This document shows, one piece after another, positions 33,160 to 62,580 of a stretch of DNA of 64,000 bases; within the stretch, counting starts at the first letter, position 1, and every line of letters starts with the position of its first letter. Under the pieces are notes generated by a model. It made no database searches, had not been told where the DNA came from, and saw only the letters and a program-made list of their open reading frames with translations. The position numbers and the translations under genes were made by a program. This stretch comes from Endozoicomonas montiporae CL-33 (GTDB lineage: Bacteria > Pseudomonadota > Gammaproteobacteria > Pseudomonadales > Endozoicomonadaceae): NCBI RefSeq assembly GCF_001583435.1, contig NZ_CP013251.1, positions 3,485,215 to 3,549,214 on the forward strand, given 5' to 3'.

Positions 33160-33166
33160 AAAAGAA

Positions 33167-33571
<405 letters not shown>

Positions 33572-43655: not shown

Positions 43656-44432
43656 ATGTTCAAAGCAGCACGGATCGCTGTACTTCTTCTCATTCTTATT
43701 GTGGTGGGTGGTAAAACCTGGCTGACACAAAAGCACAGCATAAGCTGGGAACACCCCCTTTATGTCGCTGTTCATCCATTCAGCGGTGACAATTCGGAAA
43801 AAACCAAACGCTACATTGCACAACTGGACCCGATAGATTTTGCTGGCATGGAGAGATTTCTGGCAAAGCAGGCGCAAGCCTACGGTGTCGATATTGATCA
43901 GCCTATTTCAATGTATCTTGCAGAACCATTGAGCAGCAGCCCTCCGGAACAGCCGGACAGAAGCAGCACACTGGCTATCATGCTCTGGTCATTAAAGTTC
44001 CGCTACTGGAACTGGCAAACCAAAAGAAACAGTTCCCAGGCAGACGCAGACATTCATCTTTATGTCGTCTATTTTGACCCCGATTCAACCCCTGTCCTGC
44101 AACATTCCATTGGCATGCAAAAAAGTATGGCTGGCATTGTCAACGCCTATGGCGACAGACGTTATACCGGCAGCAACCATGTGGTGATGACACATGAATT
44201 ACTGCACACCCTCGGCGCTACCGATAAATACAACCTGCAAACCGGCTTACCTCAATTCCCTGAAGGCTATGCCGAACCCGGGAAAAAGCCGCTGTACCCG
44301 CAACGCTACGCAGAGATCATGGGCGGACACATTCCAATTGATACAAACAACAAGAAGATGCCCACAAGCCTGAGACAAATCACGATTGGCTGGCATACCG
44401 CCAGAGAGATCAACTGGGTTCAGGCGGAATAG
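43656..44432 (+). CDS. Membrane-anchored or secreted HExxH zinc metallopeptidase-like protein
   Basis: A 258-residue protein with an N-terminal hydrophobic segment (IAVLLLILIVVGG) acting as signal or anchor. The zinc motif HELLH is at 180–184, followed by LGATDKY with an acidic residue at 190 that could be the third ligand. The chain around it (VVMTHELLHTLGATDKY) is convincing for a zincin. Family not identified; substrate unknown. It is convergent with, and overlaps by 23 bp, the truncated orphan gene. Confidence 0.7.
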   Translation: MFKAARIAVLLLILIVVGGKTWLTQKHSISWEHPLYVAVHPFSGDNSEKTKRYIAQLDPIDFAGMERFLAKQAQAYGVDIDQPISMYLAEPLSSSPPEQPDRSSTLAIMLWSLKFRYWNWQTKRNSSQADADIHLYVVYFDPDSTPVLQHSIGMQKSMAGIVNAYGDRRYTGSNHVVMTHELLHTLGATDKYNLQTGLPQFPEGYAEPGKKPLYPQRYAEIMGGHIPIDTNNKKMPTSLRQITIGWHTAREINWVQAE

Positions 44433-45540
44433 AGTCCAATTTAATGGTTTTATAAAGATTTAATCGATAGGCATTTAAAATATCGACCAACCTGCGAACC
44501 AGCCAATCGATTTGATCTTTGCTGATCTGATACCACGTACTGTCCGATGAAAGTTGAAGCACTGCAGAGTCAGGGGCAGAACCCGGACAAAAGTTCATAT
44601 AGGCCACAGCATTCCCAAAGGCATCTTCTGCCTCAAAAGACAATAGAAAACAATGCTTCATTTCGCTCAGCTTCGTCATTGTTTGACCGCAAGTCTGATC
44701 ATACAAAGTACAGGTAGGCGTAACTTTTGCCAGATTCTTCTTTTCAGCACCGGTAAAAAGCGTATTATCAAAAGTCGTCTCAGCCTTTTGCAACTTCACC
44801 AAAGCCGTACTGTTTACAAATGCAAGAATAAGATGATTGAACAACGCCATATCCAGTGAAATTTTAAAGTACTCTTTAGCTGGATAACCAAAAGAAACCT
44901 CTGAATTAGCCTGAGCCTGATGGAAGCCGTATAAAAAACTACCGCAATAGGAATAATTGTCCAGAAATACGTCTTGTCCTGTATATTTCCTTAAAAAATA
45001 ATAATAAGCGCCTTTGTCACCAAGCATCGAGTCCGATAGAGTTTTCAGTGCATAGCCAGCTATCACCCATGCTCCACTATTTTTTAATGATGAAGCTAAA
45101 ACACTCAGATCGTGGCTATTCTTTTTAAAAACGCCATCTACTTTATAATTTGTTATTTTTTTACCAAATGTTTCAATAGGCTTTCTCTTTATATACCAGC
45201 CTTCAATGTCACCTAGCTCTCTTTTTACGATTACTCTGACCGCCGCATACTTTGCCACCTTAAATGCTGAACGAAGCTCCTGATGATACATAAAACCGTT
45301 GTAGCCAATAAATCCAAGAGCAGCCAGAGCTGCGTTATCCCAGTGATGATAAATAAACTCTGACCAGGACATATTGATTTTTGAAAAAGCGTAAGAAAGA
45401 TCCCTGGCCTCATCAACACTTAAGCAACCACCGGATGCACAATCACTTTGAGTAAGCATTGAAAGGCCATTTTTAACATCAGATGAAAGAGATAATGAGT
45501 CAAGAAACTCTGTTCGAACATCATCGTCTAATTTGTGCCT
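44410..45540 (-). pseudogene. Orphan protein gene, 5'-truncated by an ISNCY-like element
   Basis: An open frame of about 376 codons of unknown function. The first ATG is at 45459 (349 residues), but the same frame stays open for 24 more protein-like codons (ending DVRTEFLDSLSLSSDVKNG) up to the left end of the insertion sequence. The real N-terminus has therefore probably been lost. There are two Cys-rich spots (SDCASGGC near the start, CTLYDQTCGQ near residue 255) and one weakly hydrophobic helix (NAALAALGFIGYNGF). No matching 5' part is found beyond the element. Confidence 0.6.
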
Positions 45541-47114
45541 GTCCGGAAACCCTCAAGCACTTGAATACAGAAGCCTGCAGCCCCATATAGTTCATGAAGA
45601 TTTCCCAAAACAGGCTGTTTTTCTCAATTTATGCGCCAAACCATCAACCCACAAATGCAGCTGGGAGAGATTGATATCTCTGCCATCACCTTCGACGCCA
45701 AATCGAGGGACGATATTCCCCGGCTATTGCGGGCTTTACAGCACATATGGACAAATATCGAACTGCGTAATCAGGTTTTTCAGGTACTCGATACCATGAC
45801 CACCACTGACCAGAACAATGGTCGTCCCGGTATGGAGTTCTGGAAAATACTGGTGCTTGGCACACTTCGTTTGGTTACTAACTGCGACTACGACCGTCTG
45901 AGAGAGCTTGCCAATGAACATGGTTCTCTTAGACAAATGCTTGGCCACGGTCCTTACTGTACGCGCTCTTACCATATACAGACATTGCAGGATAATATCA
46001 GCCACTTCACCCCTGAAATTCTCGATCAGATCAATCAGGTCGTCGTGGCAGCAGGCCATATGCTGGTTAAAAAAAAGACGAACCGTTACATGGCCGTGCC
46101 GATTCGTTCGTAGTTAAAACCGATGTCCACTTCCCTACGGATATCAGCCTGTTGAGCGATGCTTGCCGTAAAAGTATCGAGTTTGCATCAACCCTTGCTG
46201 AACAATACCAGCTTCCGGGGTGGCGCCAGCGTGAATATCTCAAGAATCAACACCGTAAGCGTTACCACAAAGCGCGGAACCTGAAACACTCCGGCGCTTC
46301 CTGTGAGCTGAAAAAGCGCCTGCGACAGCACGATATTGAGATGGCTCATGTTGAGTACATCAAGTACAGCAGCGCCGTTCTGCACAAGGCGGAAGTGACC
46401 TTGTCTTTGTTGGTGAAGAAACAACCCGATGAACCAAGGCTGGAAAATCTCAAATACCACATTGCTCACGGCAAGCACCAGATAGCTCTGATTTACCGGC
46501 GAGTTATTGAGCACGAACAGATTCCCCATAGCGAGAAGATATTCTCGATTTTTGAACCACACACCGAGTGGATCAGCAAAGGCAAGGCCGGTACACCGGT
46601 AGAACTGGGGCTACGAGTTTGCGTGCTACAGGATCAATTTGGTTTTACTTTGCATCATCAGGTCATGCAAAAGCAAACAGACGACCAGGTTACTGTACCT
46701 ATGGCAGAAGATGCTAAAAAGCGGTTTCCAGCATTGAATCAGGTGAGCTACGACAAGGGTTTCTGGAGCCCGGACAATCTTGAGAAGTTGGAAGCTCTTC
46801 TTGAACGTCCGGTTCTGCCCAAGAAAGGCAGACTGTCAGCCAGTGACAAAAAGCGTGAAACCCATCTGGAATTTATCCGGGCAAAAAGAAAACACTCAGC
46901 CGTGGAGTCGGATATAAATGCATTGGAATCCAACGGCCTCGATAAGTGTCCGGATAAAGGCATTGAGGGCTTTAAGCGATACGTTGCACTGGCTGTTGTT
47001 GCCGGCAATCTGAAACGGTTGGGCAAACTTCTTCTGACCAGAGATCGTCAATAGCTTTTCAGCCAGCTACCGGTCAGTTTTTGTTTTATCACGCCTGGCA
47101 TGAGGGTTTTGCAC
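45540..47114 (+). mobile_element. ISNCY-like insertion sequence
   Basis: About 1.57 kb carrying a two-frame transposase. Similar inverted end sequences are seen: AAACCCTCAAGC at 45547–45558 and, on the opposite strand, AAACCCTCATGC around 47097–47108. Exact ends and target duplication were not resolved. It cuts the orphan gene to its left. Confidence 0.65.
45631..47054 (+). CDS. ISNCY-type transposase in two frames (possible -1 frameshifting)
   Basis: The first part (45631–46113) has the ISNCY N-terminus (MRQTINPQMQLGEIDISAI, SRDDIPRLLRALQHI, PGMEFWKILVLGTLRL). The second part, continuing in the -1 frame to 47054, is the catalytic half (ISLLSDACRKSIEF, IFEPHTEWISKGKAGTP, SYDKGFWSPDN, NLKRLGKLLL). 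The join is at an A8 run: zero-frame codons AAA AAA AAG at 46069–46077 contain the slippery heptamer A-AAA-AAG, and the -1 frame then reads KKDEPLHGRADSFVVK, which is intact transposase. It is either programmed frameshifting or an A-tract indel. Confidence 0.8.
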
Positions 47115-47892: not shown

Positions 47893-48062
47893 TAGCTCTT
47901 GAGTAGTTCGCAGCAAGCTGCGGGGAATTAGACCCAAGGCTTCGCATTAAAAAACGAATGAAACAAAGGAACTTTACTGAAATCAGCCAATCTATACCTC
48001 CGTCAGGCAAGATCTGCTTATCTTGCCCTGAACCTGACATTAAGAGATTAAGGAGAATAACG
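47893..48062. other. Spacer upstream of the split orphan gene
   Basis: It contains a small palindrome (CGCAGC-AA-GCTGCG, 47909–47922) just after the intron remnant and the leader of the next gene, with AGGAG at about 48051. I see no other gene in it. Confidence 0.4.
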
Positions 48063-49393
48063 ATGTCATTTCCTATTTCAAGCCATTGTGACTCAATCTA
48101 TGGTTGTTCTGGTACTCTACCAGAACAACCCACCGAATTTGACGAAGAAAAACGATGGGATTGCCGAAAGGTAAGAAAAAACATTCCCAGCAAAAACAGT
48201 AAAATAAAACCGCCTGCAGTCCGTGGTAAAAACTTTTCTGATATGTCGATAACAGAGCGCTTCGTTTTTGTTCTTAGTCTTTTGTCAGGTTTACAGTGCG
48301 TGTCTGCACAGAGCAGTAGAAAAAGTGACATTTGCAGTGTGGCCACCCCAACTAACAGTGAACTCAACACTTGCCCAAAAGCTGGCTTTTCAGACTGGGT
48401 CGCAACGTTAGAGAAAACCGGCCGAAAAGATGATTCACTGGCAGAGTATCTGGCAGATAAGTGCTCAGCATCCAAAGTAACAACCCGCAAAAAAAGATCT
48501 GCACCTAAAAGAAAAAGTCAGCCTCAATCCTGTCTCAAACCAGACCTGATGGAGCAGATCGGTCCAGTGGGCAGAATGACCGGTGTATATAAAAAGTCAG
48601 ATGAGACCAGCATAGTGCTTGGCATTAAGAACCCTGAAACAGTTCATGTGATGAAAAAATATAAAGACCTTGTCAGTCTGGAATTCAAGACATTACAGTT
48701 AAAAAAGATTCTGGAACAGATTAATCAATACATCACTCAGAACAACAATGATTTTGGAATGCTTTCTTACGATGAGAAAGAACACGTTGTTAAAAATATG
48801 TACTATACCTTTCCTTTAACTACCTGTGTAAAAGGCCTATTTGATGAACTCGACAGCTACGATACGGCATTAAAAGAAATTTTCATGTACCAGAAAGAAT
48901 TAGGAGATTATAAAGCCTATGCCAAAGAACTGGATGGATTAATAAAAGGACGCAATGTCGTATTGTCGAGATTATTAAAATCATTAAAAAATGATCTTAA
49001 TACATTGAAAAGATATACATCAGCCGCATTAAAATTTAATAGCGACAGTAAAGGAAGTAATTTTAAAAAACACAAAAAATACATTGATTCTCAGTTTAAA
49101 AAATTAGAAGCTGTTATTAGTCCTGCAGAAATAAAAAGGCTTTTCCAACAATGCTTGAAGAATCAAAAAAAATGCCATGACGAGAAAAAGCAGGCTGAAG
49201 CCAAAGAGATTGCTGAAAGAGTCAGAGCCAGGAGAGAAGCAAACAAGAAGAGCCTTGGTATGAAGTTACTTAATTTATTTTCTGTAACTTACTTAGTATC
49301 TCTGATGAGCCTGATAGGTTCTTCACTTGTAATAATTCCTTTACCAAGAAAAATAACCCGTTACTTCGCCTCCAGAAAAAAAATAGATACTAG
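48063..49393 (+). pseudogene. Orphan membrane protein, 5' segment (interrupted by IS1380-type copy 1)
   Basis: The first 443 codons of an unrecognised gene. The ATG at 48063 has a clear AGGAG site; an in-frame ATG at 48243 would give a classical signal peptide (MSITERFVFVLSLLSGLQCVSA). A Lys-rich helical region with coiled-coil character fills the centre, and a membrane segment (LVSLMSLIGSSLVIIPL) lies near the end. The frame continues into the insertion sequence and stops at its TAA. Removing the element and one CTAG copy joins this segment in frame to 51118. The region is AT-rich compared with the core genes. Confidence 0.75.
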
Positions 49394-51113
49394 CCCGAAT
49401 ATTTCATAAAAGGAGGCAAGTTCCGCCCAATCACTTGATATAATTGGGTCGAACAAAAGAAAGCTTCGGAAGAAGCAAACCGGAACTTGCCATGCCCAAA
49501 TCTACACAAGAACAGCTTCGTTTTCATCCCTCAAATGGAAAAACCATCCGGGCAGACTTCAATGGTGGGGAGTTATCTTCTGACTTTGGCACTCTGCTGC
49601 TACGGGAAACCATTCTGCAGAGCGGTCTTATCTGCAAAATGACTGATGCCATCAATGACAGACGCCATCAATCCTATATCGACCACTCCCTGAAAGAACT
49701 TCTGGTTCAGCGGGTTCTGCAAATGGCCTGCGGCTATGAAGATGCCAACGACAGTAACCGTTTGCGTAAAGACCCTATGTTCAAACTGGCCACTGGTCGC
49801 AATCCGTTGGACAGCGATAACCATCTCGCATCAGCGCCCACTTTTACCCGGCTGGGACAATCTATGACCCGCTCCGACATTTACAGGATGGCTGAAGCAT
49901 TTGTGCATCACTTTATCAGCAGTTACAAGCTGCCACCTCCGGTGATCGTTATCGATCTTGATCATACACCGGCCATTACTCATGGTGGCCAGCAGATGAA
50001 CCTGTTTAATGCCAAATATCAGGACTACTGCTACTTGCCCCTGATGATTTTTGAGGGACTCAGCGGCAAGCTGATTACGGCGATTCTTCGTCCGGGGAAA
50101 ACCCCAACGGGCAAGGAAAATGCAGCCATTCTCGAACGGGTCATTCGGCTGCTTCGGAAAAAGTGGCCGAAAACCCATCTACTGGTTCGGGGAGACAGCC
50201 ACTTCGCTCAACCGGAGTTAATGTGGGTGGTTCAGAATGCCCCTCATTCGGATTATGTCCTGGGCAAAGGTGCAGGCCACAAAACGGCTTTGCGGCCAAA
50301 AGCCAAAGAGTTGTTGGATGAAGCGCGTCAAGCTCTGAAGGTCAAGACTGAGCTGGCAAGACTGAACAACATGCCAGAACCTGATCGGCTCAGACTTTAC
50401 GGGGAAGCAGAATACCAGGCCAAGAGCTGGAAAGGTCTCGATACCCGGATAATTTACAAGGCGGAGGTCAACCAAAAAGGCGACAACCCTCGTTTCATTG
50501 TGACGTCGATGAAGGAAGCTTCTCCAGAGGTAATTTATGAAGAGCTTTACTGTCCAAGAGGACAGGATGAGAACTTCATCAAACATCTGAAAAGTGATCT
50601 GTCCGGCGACAGATTGTCCGATCAGGGCTTTTTGGCTAACCATTTGAGAATGTTTTATGCCTGTGCCGCTTATGTTTTGCACTATGAGTTAAGAACCAAG
50701 ACTTTGAAAGGTACGGAGCTGGAAAAAGCGCAGCCATCAACGGTGATCATGAAGCTCTGTAAAGTTGCAGTCAAAGTGGTTGAATATAAAGACCGAATTA
50801 AACTTCATCTGCCGCGTAGCTGCCCATTCAAGAGGCTTTTGCAGCATGTGACAGAAGTCTTTTACCAGATGCCGATACTTCGACCGGGGTAGCAACTTTC
50901 ATAAGACTCAATCAAGGTACATAGCAACCAGATGAAAGAGCCTTGGGGCTTTCCGTTATCCTGAAATAGCAGGATTCGTTGATTAGCGTCTAATCTGTAA
51001 GCAAGTATGGGCTGCAATGTCTTTCACATGGTTAACAGAGCAACAGGCTTGCGGAAAAGTCCAAAATTAAGAGGATGGGATGGTAGTTGCTGCTTGTTTA
51101 TGAAATATCCGGG
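49394..51113 (+). mobile_element. IS1380-type insertion sequence, copy 1
   Basis: 1,720 bp with terminal inverted repeats CCCGAATATTTCATAAA (left) and CCCGGATATTTCATAAA (right, reversed). It is flanked by the 4-bp duplication CTAG at 49390–49393 and 51114–51117. Family and duplication length agree with IS1380. It is nearly identical to copy 2. Confidence 0.93.
49492..50892 (+). CDS. IS1380-family transposase (copy 1)
   Basis: 466 residues from the ATG at 49492; an in-frame TTG at 49444 would add 16. The DDE-type core is visible: VIDLDHTPAITHGGQQ, LLVRGDSHFAQPELM and the C-terminal QDENFIKHLKSDLSGDRLS with the final Glu. It ends inside the right end region of the element. The frame is intact. 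Confidence 0.92.
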   Translation: MPKSTQEQLRFHPSNGKTIRADFNGGELSSDFGTLLLRETILQSGLICKMTDAINDRRHQSYIDHSLKELLVQRVLQMACGYEDANDSNRLRKDPMFKLATGRNPLDSDNHLASAPTFTRLGQSMTRSDIYRMAEAFVHHFISSYKLPPPVIVIDLDHTPAITHGGQQMNLFNAKYQDYCYLPLMIFEGLSGKLITAILRPGKTPTGKENAAILERVIRLLRKKWPKTHLLVRGDSHFAQPELMWVVQNAPHSDYVLGKGAGHKTALRPKAKELLDEARQALKVKTELARLNNMPEPDRLRLYGEAEYQAKSWKGLDTRIIYKAEVNQKGDNPRFIVTSMKEASPEVIYEELYCPRGQDENFIKHLKSDLSGDRLSDQGFLANHLRMFYACAAYVLHYELRTKTLKGTELEKAQPSTVIMKLCKVAVKVVEYKDRIKLHLPRSCPFKRLLQHVTEVFYQMPILRPG

Positions 51114-51117
51114 CTAG

Positions 51118-51315
51118 TCGTATATTGAAAAAAATAATCGAAGATACGAAAACAAAGATACCAAAAAACTTTGAAAAATCTATGAATGAGTGTGATCGTG
51201 CAGAAGCAACAAAAAATATAAACCCGGCAAGCAGTAATTTAAAGCTGTATCCTGAGGGCTGGAAGCAGGCAAGTCTATCGAAATATCTTGATGTACGACA
51301 GGCTAAGCCAAAAAA
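51118..51315 (+). pseudogene. Orphan membrane protein, middle segment
   Basis: 66 codons (SRILKKIIEDTKTKIPKN onward to DVRQAKPKK) that continue the frame of 48063–49393 once IS copy 1 is removed. It then runs into the 133-bp MITE, whose TIR supplies a premature TAA. Basic and helical in character. Confidence 0.75.
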
Positions 51316-51448
51316 GGGGTGCAATTAAAAGTGTTCCTGACATGTTAGGTTTTCCATTTTTTAAAGCCCTAACCCTGCAGAAATGCTCGGAACAAAATTC
51401 CGAAAAATCATGATTTCAGCATTCTCGGAACACTTTTAATTGCACCCC
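51316..51448. mobile_element. 133-bp MITE with 22-bp terminal repeats
   Basis: The ends are perfect 22-bp inverted repeats (left 51316–51337 beginning GGGGTGCAATTAAAAG; right 51427–51448). The element is flanked by the 7-bp duplication CAAAAAA (51309–51315 and 51449–51455). There is no coding capacity. It belongs to no element whose transposase is visible in this window. Confidence 0.88.
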
Positions 51449-51455
51449 CAAAAAA

Positions 51456-51921
51456 GCGTCCCAAGCGAGGTCTTCGGGCAATAACTGAGAAACTTAAGGA
51501 TATTGTTATGCCAAAAGACAAGGTGCCTCAAATGCCATGGAAAGCGGATATACCAATAAATCACCAATGCATTAAACCTATTTACAGAAAAGGCTTGAAT
51601 CCATCAAGCCAACAAACTGATCCAAAAAACATTGTTGCCTATGCCTATTTTGACCCTTCATCAGATGCAATCAAAAGCACAATATCCGATGATGCCATTC
51701 AAAAAATGCAAAGCATTCATGAAGATGGTCGTTATGCGTCGCATGAGAAAAGCGCTACAGGCTACAAATGCTTTAAATATAAAAAAGAGCTTTTATGGGA
51801 GTTTAAAGTGGCTGGAGAAGAACGAGTGTATGGCTTAACGATTCCAGCGAACGAAGAGGGGAGACAAGCGGGCGTCGCTCCCCTGGTTATATTCGACACA
51901 ACATTGAATAAAAAATTATAA
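51456..51921 (+). pseudogene. Orphan membrane protein, 3' segment
   Basis: 154 codons plus stop that continue in frame from 51315 when the MITE and one CAAAAAA copy are removed (KRPKRGLRAITEKLKDIVMP onward). An ATG at 51508 could start a separate 137-residue product (MPKDKVPQMPWKADIP), but it has no good ribosome site. The C-terminal part (ELLWEFKVAGEERVYGL) is strand-rich and soluble-looking. Function unknown. Confidence 0.7.
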
Positions 51922-52217: not shown

Positions 52218-53612
52218 GGGTGCTCTCTCTGACTGATTGAAACAAAAGTACGCATTTTAAGCGACTATTATGAAGACAACTTATTATCGCTAAATCCTGC
52301 CATCATGCCTGCATCCGTCATTGCCCGTCAGTCAAAAACTATCGTACTGCAAATTGAAGTACCCATTGAATCTAACAACATGCTGAGTCTTGAAGATGGA
52401 TTGCAGCGAGCGTTGAATGAGGCAGGAGTACTTGGCACTCAAGAATTATTAAAGTTGTTTGAACCACCCAACAACGAACCTATTGTCCTTAACCAGCAAA
52501 AATGGAGCTATAAGGGGAAAGTGCTAAAGCACTACGAAACCCTTTACGGATGCGTGCCCATGGAACGCTCTGTCTATCAGGGTGTCAGAGGTGGAGTCAC
52601 TCTGGCTCCGCTTGATTATCACTCTGGGATTGTTGGCTCAGCTACGCCCAAATTTGCAAAAACTCTCGCCTGGAAGTACAGCCAGATGCCTGCTCCCGCA
52701 GTAAAAGAAGATTTTGAAACCAACCATCAAAGAGTGTTGTCAAACTCCTATATCAAGCACTTATCCGACAGGGTCTGTGCATTAATTGAAGATCAAAAAA
52801 AGACTCGTTATGATTTACCGCCGTTACCAGAGGCAGTGGAAACCATTGCTATAGGACTTGATGGCACCTGCATGCTGCTTTGCGAAGAAGGCTGGCGAGA
52901 AGCCATGTGTGGAACCTTAAGCCTTTATTCTGCCAATGGCGACAGACTTCACACAATCTACACCGCCAGTTCGCCTGAATATGGTAAACAAAGCTTTATG
53001 AACAAGCTGGACGATGAGATTGCGGATCTCAAACGTCTCTATCCGCAAGCAACATACATTGGCGTAGCCGATGGAGCTAAAGAAAACTGGCGATACCTGA
53101 AGCAGCATACCTCAGCTCAAATACTCGATTTTTTTCATGCCTCAGAGTATCTGGGAGGAGTGGCAGAAGCGTTGTTTCCGAGCAGTAAAGCCAAGAGAAA
53201 GCAGTGGCTTGAAGACAAGCTCCACAACCTGAAAAACAAGCGAGGGGCAGCCAAAAAAATACTGAAAGAAATTGAATCTGCCGAACTCCCGAAAAAGACT
53301 ACTGCACTGATAGAGAAGCGTTACAAGGCGGTGACCTATTTTACGAACAACCATCATTTGATGAAATACCATCAAGCCCTGAAACATAACTGGCCGATAG
53401 GCTCTGGAGTGACAGAAGCTGCTTGTAAGACATTGGTCAAACAACGGCTGTGTGGTTCAGGTATGAGGTGGAAACCAGCAGGTGCAGAAGTTCTTCTTGA
53501 AACGAGGTCTTTGATCCAGAGTAAAGGGCGTTGGAATCAACTTTGGTCTAGCTTTATGTCAGGCAGGATGATAGTTGATTTTTGAATCAACTATCAAATT
53601 GAGAGAGCACCC
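52218..53612 (+). mobile_element. ISKra4-type insertion sequence
   Basis: 1,395 bp bounded by the inverted ends GGGTGCTCTCTC (52218–52229) and GAGAGAGCACCC (53601–53612). It carries one intact transposase. No direct target duplication was recognised. Confidence 0.85.
52305..53585 (+). CDS. ISKra4-family transposase
   Basis: A 426-residue transposase with the family features: the catalytic Asp region AIGLDGTCMLLCEEGWREA, IGVADGAKENW, DFFHASEYLGGVAEAL and the C-terminal WPIGSGVTEAACKTLVKQRL holding the last acidic residue. The frame is intact. The start is the first ATG in a plausible frame; its ribosome site is weak. Confidence 0.88.
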   Translation: MPASVIARQSKTIVLQIEVPIESNNMLSLEDGLQRALNEAGVLGTQELLKLFEPPNNEPIVLNQQKWSYKGKVLKHYETLYGCVPMERSVYQGVRGGVTLAPLDYHSGIVGSATPKFAKTLAWKYSQMPAPAVKEDFETNHQRVLSNSYIKHLSDRVCALIEDQKKTRYDLPPLPEAVETIAIGLDGTCMLLCEEGWREAMCGTLSLYSANGDRLHTIYTASSPEYGKQSFMNKLDDEIADLKRLYPQATYIGVADGAKENWRYLKQHTSAQILDFFHASEYLGGVAEALFPSSKAKRKQWLEDKLHNLKNKRGAAKKILKEIESAELPKKTTALIEKRYKAVTYFTNNHHLMKYHQALKHNWPIGSGVTEAACKTLVKQRLCGSGMRWKPAGAEVLLETRSLIQSKGRWNQLWSSFMSGRMIVDF

Positions 53613-59326: not shown

Positions 59327-60856
59327 TTAATTGTTCTCCAGCTCGCTGACAGAATCCGTAACCTTAGCCGTAATATCCTGCTTCCACGCCAGAGCCGGCA
59401 TAACCAGTTTCTTTGTCAGCAGTTTCCATGCCTTATAGCGATCGCCTGGCTGTTTGCTGCCCTCCAGAGCTTGCAAAGGGAAGAAGATATAACTGTAGGA
59501 CGACGGCTGGTTGACCTCACTGACCCTGAACAGTTTATCAACAGACAACATAATGTCGTAATCTGTCCGGTCTTCCAGAGTTTGGAATGCTTTTTTTGAT
59601 ACAGACCAGCGCCCGGTGCGCCCATTAAACTGTTCAAGCCTGTACGGCTTCTCAGGCTTAAGCCCTTTAAGCTTGACTTTGTGGGTCCAGAGTTTGCTCT
59701 GATTATTCACATAAGTGACGCGAAGGCCGACTTTTTCTGATTTACAACAAAGTCGGCCACCCGTTGATTTCCAAGGTCTAGAGGAAAATATATTGCACAT
59801 AAGTACATTAAAAATACAGCAAAATCGACGCATTTGGACGACACATGTCTTTCGAAATGCGGCAAATTAATGTTGTAACATGGTGCTATTTTCTTATCTA
59901 AGCCTTGGGAATTCTGAAAAGTCCGAATTTTGGCATTTACAGTAAAAGTCGGTCTTCGCGTATAAGTGCCTGCAAGGTATTCTTTACCATTAACCTGAAC
60001 AATGGGTAAAACCGATAGATATTGAGACAGTTGACCAGATCGATCAGGATCGATTTGCCAGCCTCTGGCCAGTCTGGCGGATGCCGAATGTCCTTTTTTA
60101 CTTTTTGGAGGGCTGTCCGCCAACAAAACAGGCGTTATCTCGTTTGTATAACCTAATACCTGCTCCCAGACCGGCTGTTTATCGGACTGAAGCTTAGTAA
60201 TGACATGATCCATACAATCTCTGGCTTTTTCACCACAGGAAACATCGCAAACCGACATCAACAAATGCATGACTTTCCAGCGCTCATTAATGATGCCAGC
60301 CTGATCAACAACGTCGAACAGGTAAGTCAGCCAGTCAGCATCTTTTTCCGTCAACTCATTTAAGCGACGACGGTCACCAGATACCAGATAAAACTGATTG
60401 CTATTGTAGTGATGGTTATCCAAAAGATATTGATTACGTTCTACCTGGGAAACACAGGCACCCTTGAACGAACTGCCAATATTCGTGACTTTGGACCGGT
60501 TTCCATAAAAAGGGTGATACTTAGTCACCAAAATATCTTCAGGGGCATTATGACGGGTCAGCTCAAACAGCTCGCTCAGCAAATCCAGAGACTCTCTTTT
60601 ATGCAGCGTATTGCAAAGCCCATTGCTGATACCAATGCCAAAATGAGCAGAACAGCTCTCTTTTGAAACCTGTTGGCCGGAAAGTTTTCTGACATGACTG
60701 CTGGTAGAGGCATACAGAAGAGGCAGCGATTCATACAATGGTACCTTGATCTCCTTATAAGGGTTGTGATGATTCAAAATAAACTGATCGCCTTGACCAT
60801 CCTTCTGTTCCCTACGTAGAATCGCAGCCCCCGAAGGCAGAAATGGAACCATGTTC
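59327..60856 (-). pseudogene. Orphan protein, distal segment with frameshift (interrupted by IS1380-type copy 2)
   Basis: This segment contains two overlapping frames. The upstream one starts at 60852 and runs 381 codons, ending in VADFVVNQKKSAFASLM. The downstream one continues VGLRVTYVNNQSKLWTHKV to the stop at 59327. They join if the five-A run near 59740 originally had six A's. The upstream frame joins in frame to 62585–62876 when IS copy 2 and one TTAG copy are removed. The reconstructed protein is about 608 residues, Cys-containing, with no recognised domain. Confidence 0.7.
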
Positions 60857-60860
60857 TTAG

Positions 60861-62580
60861 CCCGAATATTTCATAAAAGGAGGCAAGTTCCGCCCAATCA
60901 CTTGATATAATTGGGTCGACCAAAAGAAAGCTTCGGAAGAAGCAAACCGGAACTTGCCATGCCCAAATCTACACAAGAACAGCTTCGTTTTCATCCCTCA
61001 AATGGAAAAACCATCCGGGCAGACTTCAATGGTGGGGAGTTATCTTCTGACTTTGGCACTCTGCTGCTACGGGAAACCATTCTGCAGAGCGGTCTTATCT
61101 GCAAAATGACTGATGCCATCAATGACAGACGCCATCAATCCTATATCGACCACTCCCTGAAAGAACTTCTGGTTCAGCGGGTTCTGCAAATGGCCTGCGG
61201 CTATGAAGATGCCAACGACAGTAACCGTTTGCGTAAAGACCCTATGTTCAAACTGGCCACTGGTCGCAATCCGTTGGACAGCGATAACCATCTCGCATCA
61301 GCGCCCACTTTTACCCGGCTGGGACAATCTATGACCCGCTCCGACATTTACAGGATGGCTGAAGCATTTGTGCATCACTTTATCAGCAGTTACAAGCTGC
61401 CACCCCCGGTGATCGTTATCGATCTTGATCATACACCGGCCATTACTCATGGTGGCCAGCAGATGAACCTGTTTAATGCCAAATATCAGGACTACTGCTA
61501 CTTGCCCCTGATGATTTTTGAGGGACTCAGCGGCAAGCTGATTACGGCGATTCTTCGTCCGGGGAAAACCCCAACGGGCAAGGAAAATGCAGCTATTCTC
61601 GAACGGGTCATTCGGCTGCTTCGGAAAAAGTGGCCGAAAACCCATCTACTGGTTCGGGGAGACAGCCACTTCGCTCAACCAGAGTTAATGTGGGTGGTTC
61701 AGAATGCCCCTCATTCGGATTATGTCCTGGGCAAAGGTGCAGGCCACAAAACGGCTTTGCGGCCAAAAGCCAAAGAGTTGTTGGATGAAGCGCGTCAAGC
61801 TCTGAAGGTCAAGACTGAGCTGGCAAGACTGAACAACATGCCAGAACCTGATCGGCTCAGACTTTACGGGGAAGCAGAATACCAGGCCAAGAGCTGGAAA
61901 GGTCTCGATACCCGGATAATTTACAAGGCGGAGGTCAACCAAAAAGGCGACAACCCTCGTTTCATTGTGACGTCGATGAAGGAAGCTTCTCCAGAGGTAA
62001 TTTATGAAGAGCTTTACTGTCCAAGAGGACAGGATGAGAACTTCATCAAACATCTGAAAAGTGATCTGTCCGGCGACAGATTGTCCGATCAGGGCTTTTT
62101 GGCTAACCATTTGAGAATGTTTTATGCCTGTGCCGCTTATGTTTTGCACTATGAGTTAAGAACCAAGACTTTGAAAGGTACGGAGCTGGAAAAAGCGCAG
62201 CCATCAACGGTGATCATGAAGCTCTGTAAAGTTGCAGTCAAAGTGGTTGAATATAAAGACCGAATTAAACTTCATCTGCCGCGTAGCTGCCCATTCAAGA
62301 GGCTTTTGCAGCATGTGACAGAAGTCTTTTACCAGATGCCGATACTTCGACCGGGGTAGCAACTTTCATAAGACTCAATCAAGGTACATAGCAACCAGAT
62401 GAAAGAGCCTTGGGGCTTTCCGTTATCCTGAAATAGCAGGATTCGTTGATTAGCGTCTAATCTGTAAGCAAGTATGGGCTGCAATGTCTTTCACATGGTT
62501 AACAGAGCAACAGGCTTGCGGAAAAGTCCAAAATTAAGAGGATGGGATGGTAGTTGCTGCTTGTTTATGAAATATCCGGG
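60861..62580 (+). mobile_element. IS1380-type insertion sequence, copy 2
   Basis: 1,720 bp, the same ends as copy 1, flanked by the 4-bp duplication TTAG (60857–60860 and 62581–62584). I count about four base differences from copy 1 (for example 60923 region Thr/Pro codon, 61403, 61595, 61681). Confidence 0.93.
60959..62359 (+). CDS. IS1380-family transposase (copy 2)
   Basis: 466 residues, with the same protein sequence as copy 1 from the ATG at 60959; the only amino-acid difference lies in the possible upstream extension from 60911. The catalytic motifs VIDLDHTPAITHGG and VRGDSHFAQPEL are intact, so both copies should be able to supply transposase. Confidence 0.92.
   Translation: MPKSTQEQLRFHPSNGKTIRADFNGGELSSDFGTLLLRETILQSGLICKMTDAINDRRHQSYIDHSLKELLVQRVLQMACGYEDANDSNRLRKDPMFKLATGRNPLDSDNHLASAPTFTRLGQSMTRSDIYRMAEAFVHHFISSYKLPPPVIVIDLDHTPAITHGGQQMNLFNAKYQDYCYLPLMIFEGLSGKLITAILRPGKTPTGKENAAILERVIRLLRKKWPKTHLLVRGDSHFAQPELMWVVQNAPHSDYVLGKGAGHKTALRPKAKELLDEARQALKVKTELARLNNMPEPDRLRLYGEAEYQAKSWKGLDTRIIYKAEVNQKGDNPRFIVTSMKEASPEVIYEELYCPRGQDENFIKHLKSDLSGDRLSDQGFLANHLRMFYACAAYVLHYELRTKTLKGTELEKAQPSTVIMKLCKVAVKVVEYKDRIKLHLPRSCPFKRLLQHVTEVFYQMPILRPG

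What the first reader, a model, noticed from the sequence alone, without database searches (positions are those of the whole stretch)
48063..51921. A 664-codon orphan membrane-protein gene split by two independent insertions can be rebuilt exactly in frame
Removing the IS1380-type element plus one CTAG copy, and the 133-bp MITE plus one CAAAAAA copy, leaves 1331+198+466 = 1995 nt, exactly 665 codons, with one uninterrupted frame from the ATG at 48063 to the stop at 51921. That both junctions restore the frame is strong evidence that three apparently separate small genes are pieces of one. The parent has a signal-like N-terminus, a Lys-rich coiled-coil-like middle, a membrane segment and a soluble C-terminal domain, and I recognise no family. 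It may be host-interaction cargo under decay.
Basis: partly seen in the sequence, partly recalled or inferred. Interest (0 to 1): 0.75.

Follow-up and report, generated by a model that had tools for sequence, protein, structure and literature searches.

The report
Coral-symbiont gene broken by two insertions
A gene for an uncharacterised, probably membrane-bound protein, seen so far only in Endozoicomonas-type bacteria, has been split in three in this genome by two mobile elements that look recently active, while intact copies survive in related species; what the protein does is not known.

Summary
One reading frame (48063-51921) is interrupted by a 1720-bp IS1380-family element (CTAG duplication) and by a short non-autonomous element. 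The short element is corrected here: 131 bp with a 9-bp duplication CCAAAAAAG, not 133 bp with 7 bp, and derived from a 1411-bp ISKra4-type element held elsewhere in the genome. Net length is unchanged, so the 1995-nt sum stands. The decisive evidence is orthology: intact single-frame orthologues (664-681 aa) in 4 of 9 other same-genus genomes carry all three pieces in order. The genome is most likely Endozoicomonas montiporae CL-33, for which a published study already counts 56 genes inactivated by insertions. The family was found in 8 of 37 Endozoicomonadaceae genomes and, of 369 genomes drawn from the class, only in the window's own; no Pfam, NCBIfam or PADLOC family matches above cut-off. 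It has a basic N-terminus, a predicted helical bundle, usually one membrane segment, and a strongly conserved C-terminal domain whose RelE/HigB-like fold is a weak, unproven lead. A promoter-like block upstream is conserved across species. Function is inferred, not shown. The pseudogene is ordinary; the unnamed family is modestly interesting.

The parts
47968..47996 (+). promoter-like block GGAACTTTACTG-N8-CAATCTATA
   Evidence: Nearly identical upstream of all 5 same-genus copies while the flanks diverge (93-96 nt from block start to ATG, from the places); also upstream of the two distant copies in G020 and G026 with 3 and 2 mismatches; not seen by eye upstream of the two G017 copies. The ECF/sigma-E reading is recalled, not tested.
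48063..49393 (+). piece A: first two thirds of the gene (native 1331 nt); the ORF now runs to a stop at 49409 (448 aa)
   Evidence: 300 of 445 aligned positions identical (67%) to residues 1-445 of the intact 664-aa orthologue P0007; profile positions 1-443; AAGGAG upstream of the ATG
48246..48317 (+). weak hydrophobic segment (residues 62-85) in a conserved stretch
   Evidence: Kyte-Doolittle maximum 1.38 here; the 1.2 threshold is reached at this place in only 3 of 10 other family members. F59, M62, V69 and L72 (orthologue numbering) are invariant.
48588..49247 (+). predicted helical bundle (orthologue residues 177-396)
49281..49337 (+). predicted membrane segment (residues 407-425)
   Evidence: Kyte-Doolittle maximum 1.94; a segment above 1.2 at the matching place in 9 of 10 other family members, none in L030; low model confidence here
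49390..49393 (.). CTAG target duplication, left copy
49394..51113 (+). IS1380-family insertion element, 1720 bp
49444..50892 (+). IS1380 transposase ORF (482 aa)
   Evidence: PF13701 E 9.1e-139; NF033539 E 3.8e-109
51114..51117 (.). CTAG target duplication, right copy
51118..51316 (+). piece B of the gene (native 199 nt, including the first CCAAAAAAG)
   Evidence: 26 of 64 positions identical (41%) to residues 448-511 of P0007, E 3e-13; profile positions 439-510
51308..51316 (.). CCAAAAAAG target duplication, left copy
51317..51447 (.). 131-bp non-autonomous element (MITE) with 21-bp inverted repeats, apparently derived from an ISKra4-type element
   Evidence: 6 copies in the genome, 9-bp duplication in 6 of 6; termini shared with two 1411-bp elements, one of which was scanned and carries an ISKra4-like transposase
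51448..51456 (.). CCAAAAAAG target duplication, right copy
51457..51921 (+). piece C: 3' end of the gene with the conserved C-terminal domain and the stop
   Evidence: 122 of 155 positions identical (79%) to residues 511-664 of P0007; profile positions 508-660
51496..51510 (+). possible internal translation start (AAGGAT, then ATG at 51508 opening the 137-aa frame)
   Evidence: AAG GAT in the same register in 5 of 5 same-genus copies, followed by ATG in 4 and GTG in 1; crude chance about 1 in 20
51631..51918 (+). C-terminal alpha/beta domain with RelE/HigB-like order of elements (unproven)
   Evidence: AlphaFold model of piece C, mean pLDDT 74.7, pTM 0.70, 6 sequences; weak structural matches

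Best explanation
Shown: the region is a pseudogenised copy of one gene. An IS1380-family element inserted about 18 codons after the predicted membrane segment, and an ISKra4-derived MITE inserted further 3'; their order is unknown and both look recent. The intact gene encodes a protein of about 665 aa found so far only in Endozoicomonadaceae. Inferred: the protein is held in a membrane by the segment near residues 407-427 (a second anchor near 62-85 is doubtful). It carries a helical bundle before that segment and, after it, a C-terminal alpha/beta domain, the part under the strongest constraint, which acts as the functional head. It is made from its own promoter, which stays with the gene in several different neighbourhoods. 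The likeliest role is at the bacterial envelope or in the animal host cell, with the C-terminal head binding or cutting a macromolecule in the manner of RelE-fold proteins. In this genome the gene's own promoter could drive only a tail-less 448-aa fragment, so the function is most likely lost. The confidence given is for the pseudogene and its family; for the function taken alone I would give about 0.3.
For: Intact orthologues in 4 of 9 other same-genus genomes, single open frames. Pieces A, B and C align to residues 1-445, 448-511 and 511-664 of one intact protein. Both inserts have exact target duplications and near-identical copies elsewhere in the genome: at least 23 full-length IS1380 copies, 6 MITE copies. 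No stop or frameshift in the native pieces, and dN/dS in A and C like that among the intact copies. dN/dS over all pairs 0.18-0.33 in piece C against 0.32-0.65 in piece A. Membrane segment in 9 of 10 other members. Conserved upstream block. 12 of the 22 structural rows shown for the C-terminal model are toxin-antitoxin toxins: 9 named HigB, RelJK or YoeB/ParE, and 3 (4lsy, 8yxv, 1z8m) that I assign partly from recall.
Confidence: 0.8

Rival explanations
1. The protein is an effector injected by the type III secretion system into coral or other invertebrate host cells. The N-terminus is the secretion signal, the hydrophobic segment inserts in a host membrane, and the C-terminal domain acts in the host cytoplasm.
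For: Family seen only in Endozoicomonadaceae in genome searches (that these are mostly host-associated is recalled). Patchy presence (5 of 10 genomes of the genus) and differing neighbourhoods. An ADP-ribosyltransferase-like gene sits beside the intact copy in G004, and a relative of it about 5 kb away in G003. A type III system and 242 predicted effectors are reported for E. montiporae (PMC4781883, passages).
Against: No secretion-signal predictor was available and the paper's effector table could not be read. Neighbours of several intact copies look like housekeeping genes (nap genes in G002 and G003, a miaB-like and a phoH-like gene in G020 and G026, names recalled from the translations). 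The upstream block was not found on other genes above control.
Confidence: 0.3
2. The protein is a bacterial inner-membrane protein of the envelope, induced by an extracytoplasmic-function sigma factor such as sigma-E, with a bundle on one side and the C-terminal head on the other.
For: A GGAACTTT-spacer-TCTATA block is conserved upstream in 5 of 5 same-genus copies and a similar one lies upstream of two distant copies. Basic residues follow the membrane segment (at least 5 K/R in the 15 residues after its strongest stretch in the 9 members where it was called). Four cysteines are invariant in the 7-sequence alignment (C130, C256, C372, C470), the last three also in the 10-sequence alignment.
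Against: The sigma-E consensus is recalled, and no sigma factor gene was sought. No regulon was detected at this stringency. Two G017 copies lack the block.
Confidence: 0.3
3. Piece A (448 aa) and the 137-aa 3' frame are separate functional genes, and the apparent continuity is chance.
For: Both are open; the 137-aa frame has an AAGGAT sequence before its ATG.
Against: The homologues found with piece A (in 7 relatives) all carry piece C too; no short free relative of piece C exists among 13 candidates; both junctions are exact target duplications.
Confidence: 0.02

Closest known systems
Uncharacterised proteins of about 665 aa of Endozoicomonas (sp. 4G, 2B-B, 8E, ISHI1, E. gorgoniicola) and longer ones (E. 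ascidiicola and others), 'hypothetical protein'
   Same: Same gene, full length, all three pieces in order
   Different: Theirs are intact; the window copy carries two insertions. P0007, P0009, P0011 and P0013 came without a name in the search tables
Insertion-inactivated genes of E. montiporae CL-33 (PMC4781883: 56 genes inactivated by insertions, at least 452 mobile elements; passages read)
   Same: Same genome by size (5,430,256 against 5,430,252 bp) and same process
   Different: Whether this gene is in that paper's Table S2 was not checked (no supplement look-ups); the passages read call IS1-like elements most active and name neither a MITE nor this family
RelE/HigB/YoeB/ParE toxin fold
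   Different: Fused to a membrane protein of about 500 aa; no sequence-family match; one extra strand before the WEFK strand; no antitoxin partner known (not properly searched)
IS1380 family
   Same: Transposase model above cut-off, 4-bp duplications
   Different: None seen
ISKra4 family and its non-autonomous derivatives
   Same: Termini and 9-bp duplications shared with a 1411-bp element whose transposase hits NF033572 at E 3.7e-60
   Different: The partner scores 204.2 against a cut-off of 205, just under; one base differs in one of its inverted repeats

Membership tests
Endozoicomonadaceae 665-aa family (defined here) | All three native pieces match consecutive parts of one full-length family profile | tested here: met
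   Model positions 1-443, 439-510, 508-660 in order
Endozoicomonadaceae 665-aa family (defined here) | Single uninterrupted frame | tested here: not met
   Interrupted by two elements in the window; so a pseudogene of the family
IS1380 | Transposase of the family | tested here: met
   NF033539 365.1 bits, cut-off 180
IS1380 | 4-bp target duplication | tested here: met
   11 of the 12 copies read, of at least 23 full-length
ISKra4-derived MITE | Same termini and duplication length as an autonomous ISKra4-type element | tested here: met
   21-bp inverted repeats shared with the 1411-bp elements (one mismatch at one end); 9-bp duplications in 6 of 6 MITE copies and 2 of 2 partners
ISKra4-derived MITE | Partner transposase reaches the family cut-off | tested here: inconclusive
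   204.2 bits against 205 for the one partner scanned
RelE/HigB toxin superfamily | Fold of the C-terminal domain | tested here: inconclusive
RelE/HigB toxin superfamily | Match to a sequence family of the superfamily | tested here: not met
   None of 6 C-terminal sequences hits such a Pfam model; hhalign with HigB not above decoys (18 of 100), with Gp49 2 of 100; the same test is also weak between Gp49 and HigB
RelE/HigB toxin superfamily | Antitoxin gene next door | not tested
   Only ORFs of 90 aa or more were listed around the intact copies, too long a limit for many antitoxins
Type III secretion effector | N-terminal secretion signal and translocation into host cells | not testable with these tools
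   No predictor; experiment needed

The most novel reading that the evidence does not exclude
The intact gene makes two products: a membrane-held full-length protein and, from a conserved internal start (AAGGAT followed by ATG or GTG), the free C-terminal domain with a RelE-like fold that acts as a ribonuclease-type effector head. Insertions in E. montiporae have destroyed the membrane-held form but left the free domain readable. That would be a new architecture for the RelE fold and a lineage-specific symbiosis factor.
Probability: 0.06. Interest if true: 0.6.

Novelty: new member of a known kind. Interest (0 to 1): 0.3.

Why it matters
As a broken gene it is one more case of the insertion-driven erosion already published for this coral symbiont. 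Its use is twofold. It shows that several small ORFs of this genome are pieces of one gene, and it brings out a protein family, seen so far only in Endozoicomonadaceae, that the libraries searched do not describe. The family has a strongly conserved C-terminal domain and, in 7 of the 9 copies found in genome searches, a conserved block upstream. If it acts in the envelope or in the host, it would be a handle on how these bacteria live in invertebrates.

Tried and rejected
Tried without result: Pfam, NCBIfam, PADLOC and PHROGs scans of pieces and intact orthologues (only matches under cut-off, such as PilO E 0.027 and CadC_C1 E 0.012, each in a single protein; DUF2396 E 0.024 and DA_C E 0.032, each in 1 of 6); PDB sequence search with profiles (none at E 10 and E 1); Foldseek against PDB and viral models (none below 0.001; best 1.1, 0.56, 0.47); the C-terminal profile in 37 family genomes, which gave the known copies and three weak hits in G017 and G025 (E 0.012-0.98), so no second architecture; plasmid and phage records and viral contigs, no relative; literature searches for Endozoicomonas with IS1380, ISKra4 and miniature inverted-repeat, none; Txp40 with crystal structure, listing only.

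Dropped before counts: the Gp49 set was picked by a motif filter (10 proteins from the 30 loci), 21 of the 30 HigB loci were used (near full-length matches). One search scored only the 7995 candidates that share most words. In one search two distant matches show one stop inside; by position it is the genes' own end.
Full report
What was checked. The window lies in a single-contig genome of 5,430,256 bases. By size, and by the Endozoicomonas names on its nearest relatives (sp. 4G, 8E, 2B-B, E. gorgoniicola), it is most likely Endozoicomonas montiporae CL-33, published at 5,430,252 bp (PMC4781883, passages read); this name is an inference. The three native segments sum to 1995 nt, whether its element ends (1331+198+466) or the corrected ones (1331+199+465) are used.

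The inserts. The first insert, 49394-51113, is an IS1380-family element: transposase model NF033539 at 365.1 bits against a cut-off of 180, CTAG on both sides, at least 23 full-length copies that print as 100% identical in the genome (40 of 54 candidates scored), and a 4-bp duplication at 11 of the 12 copies read. The second is a MITE. The outermost base differs between copies, so the element is 131 bp (51317-51447) with 21-bp inverted repeats and a 9-bp duplication, CCAAAAAAG here, seen at 6 of 6 copies. Its termini recur, with one base changed at one end, on two 1411-bp elements that also have 9-bp duplications, 2 of 2. The one scanned carries an ISKra4-type transposase (E 3.7e-60, 204.2 bits against a cut-off of 205). 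The MITE is therefore most simply a derivative mobilised by that element.

Why the pieces are one gene. The frame sum alone is modest evidence; orthology is strong. Searched apart, piece A and piece C each hit the same 8 of 57 genomes (the own genome and 7 relatives), and in the four same-genus relatives they lie in one open frame. P0007 (664 aa) aligns to piece A over residues 1-445, to piece B over 448-511 and to piece C over 511-664. A profile of ten intact members hits the window three times, in order, with overlaps of a few positions only. Free-standing relatives of piece C were sought among 13 candidates and only the window's own ORF was found. The truncated 448-aa protein and the 137-aa ORF are each reported on two contigs in the protein collection. 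That speaks against an assembly error, but both contigs may come from one strain.

Age of the break. The native pieces contain no stop or frameshift over 443, 65 and 154 codons. dN/dS between the window copy and the four intact ones (A 0.32-0.57, C 0.19-0.32) is like that among the intact ones (A 0.35-0.65, C 0.18-0.33). Piece B is small and diverged: 37-48% identity to intact copies, which are 44-74% identical to each other, with dS above 1 in the window pairs. This is the one result that could mean relaxed constraint. With the near-identical insert copies, a recent break is the simplest reading.

The family. 8 of 37 Endozoicomonadaceae genomes, the own included, have it; of 369 genomes drawn from the class only the own one does. 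Within the genus it is present in 5 of 10 genomes. One more relative, P0013 (703 aa, source unnamed), came from a separate protein search. Neighbourhoods differ: nap genes beside the copies in G002 and G003, an ADP-ribosyltransferase-like gene beside that in G004, a miaB-like and a phoH-like gene in G020 and G026 (most of these names are recalled from the translations). No Pfam, NCBIfam, PADLOC or PHROGs family matches above cut-off or convincingly, and no PDB sequence matches.

Expression. A block GGAACTTTAYTG-N8-CAATCTATA is nearly identical upstream of all five same-genus copies and recognisable upstream of the two distant copies in G020 and G026, though not the two in G017. It resembles an extracytoplasmic-function sigma promoter (recalled consensus). 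A search of 37 genomes with up to 3 mismatches found 16 places: 7 are these genes and 9 others do not exceed the control of 12. So it travels with the gene and no regulon was detected at this stringency. Inside the gene, AAG GAT followed by ATG (GTG in one genome) is invariant in 5 of 5 same-genus copies before the start of the 137-aa frame. Among 28 invariant lysines 3 are AAG in all five, and among 13 invariant aspartates 6 are GAT (pieces A and C), so the crude chance is about 1 in 20. An internal start is possible, not shown.

How it works, and verdict. Committed reading: a membrane-held protein with a conserved soluble head, used at the envelope or towards the animal host, lost in this genome by two recent insertions. 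The pseudogene and family membership are shown; membrane placement is a prediction; the role and the RelE-like head are inferred (about 0.3 each for host effector and for envelope protein). The published account of this genome already reports 56 genes inactivated by insertions and active mobile elements, so the event is of a known kind. Whether this locus is on that list was not checked. Searches for IS1380, ISKra4 and miniature inverted-repeat elements with Endozoicomonas found no paper in the library held.

Noticed in passing
window 60861-62580: A second full-length copy of the same IS1380 element lies in the window, 9.7 kb downstream.
   Followed up: partly
window 45631-47054: An ISNCY-type transposase gene is split into two frames (160 and 300 aa, 125.0 and 292.4 bits, each below the cut-off of 325) just upstream of the finding.
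   Followed up: no
window 52305-53585: An ISKra4-family transposase (212.2 bits, cut-off 205) lies just downstream; it is a different protein (426 aa) from the 347-aa transposase of the MITE's partner.
   Followed up: partly
L142 (own genome), 100-1650: A MITE copy and a full 1411-bp partner element lie side by side with the same 9-bp target sequence (TATCGACAC, GTGTCGATA on the other strand), as if both went into one site.
   Followed up: partly
L024 11168-12091 (-); L025 15956-16870 (-): Next to the intact orthologue in G004, and about 5 kb from it in G003, lies a gene resembling an ADP-ribosyltransferase (weak NCBIfam match of the G004 copy, E 3.7e-5, below cut-off; the two copies 75% identical); described only.
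   Followed up: no
window 44410-45459 (-), 59707-60852 (-): Two ORFs of 349 and 381 aa without any Pfam match above cut-off, possible further lineage-specific genes.
   Followed up: no
window 33164-33568 (-): Bacterial class A RNase P RNA, complete.
   Followed up: no
L033 5359 and L034 5725: The listed GTG starts of the distant orthologues (786 and 777 aa) run through the conserved upstream block. A database version of the first starts 43 residues later (P0011, 743 aa), while the second keeps the long start there (P0012, 777 aa); if the block is a promoter, the longer starts are wrong.
   Followed up: partly
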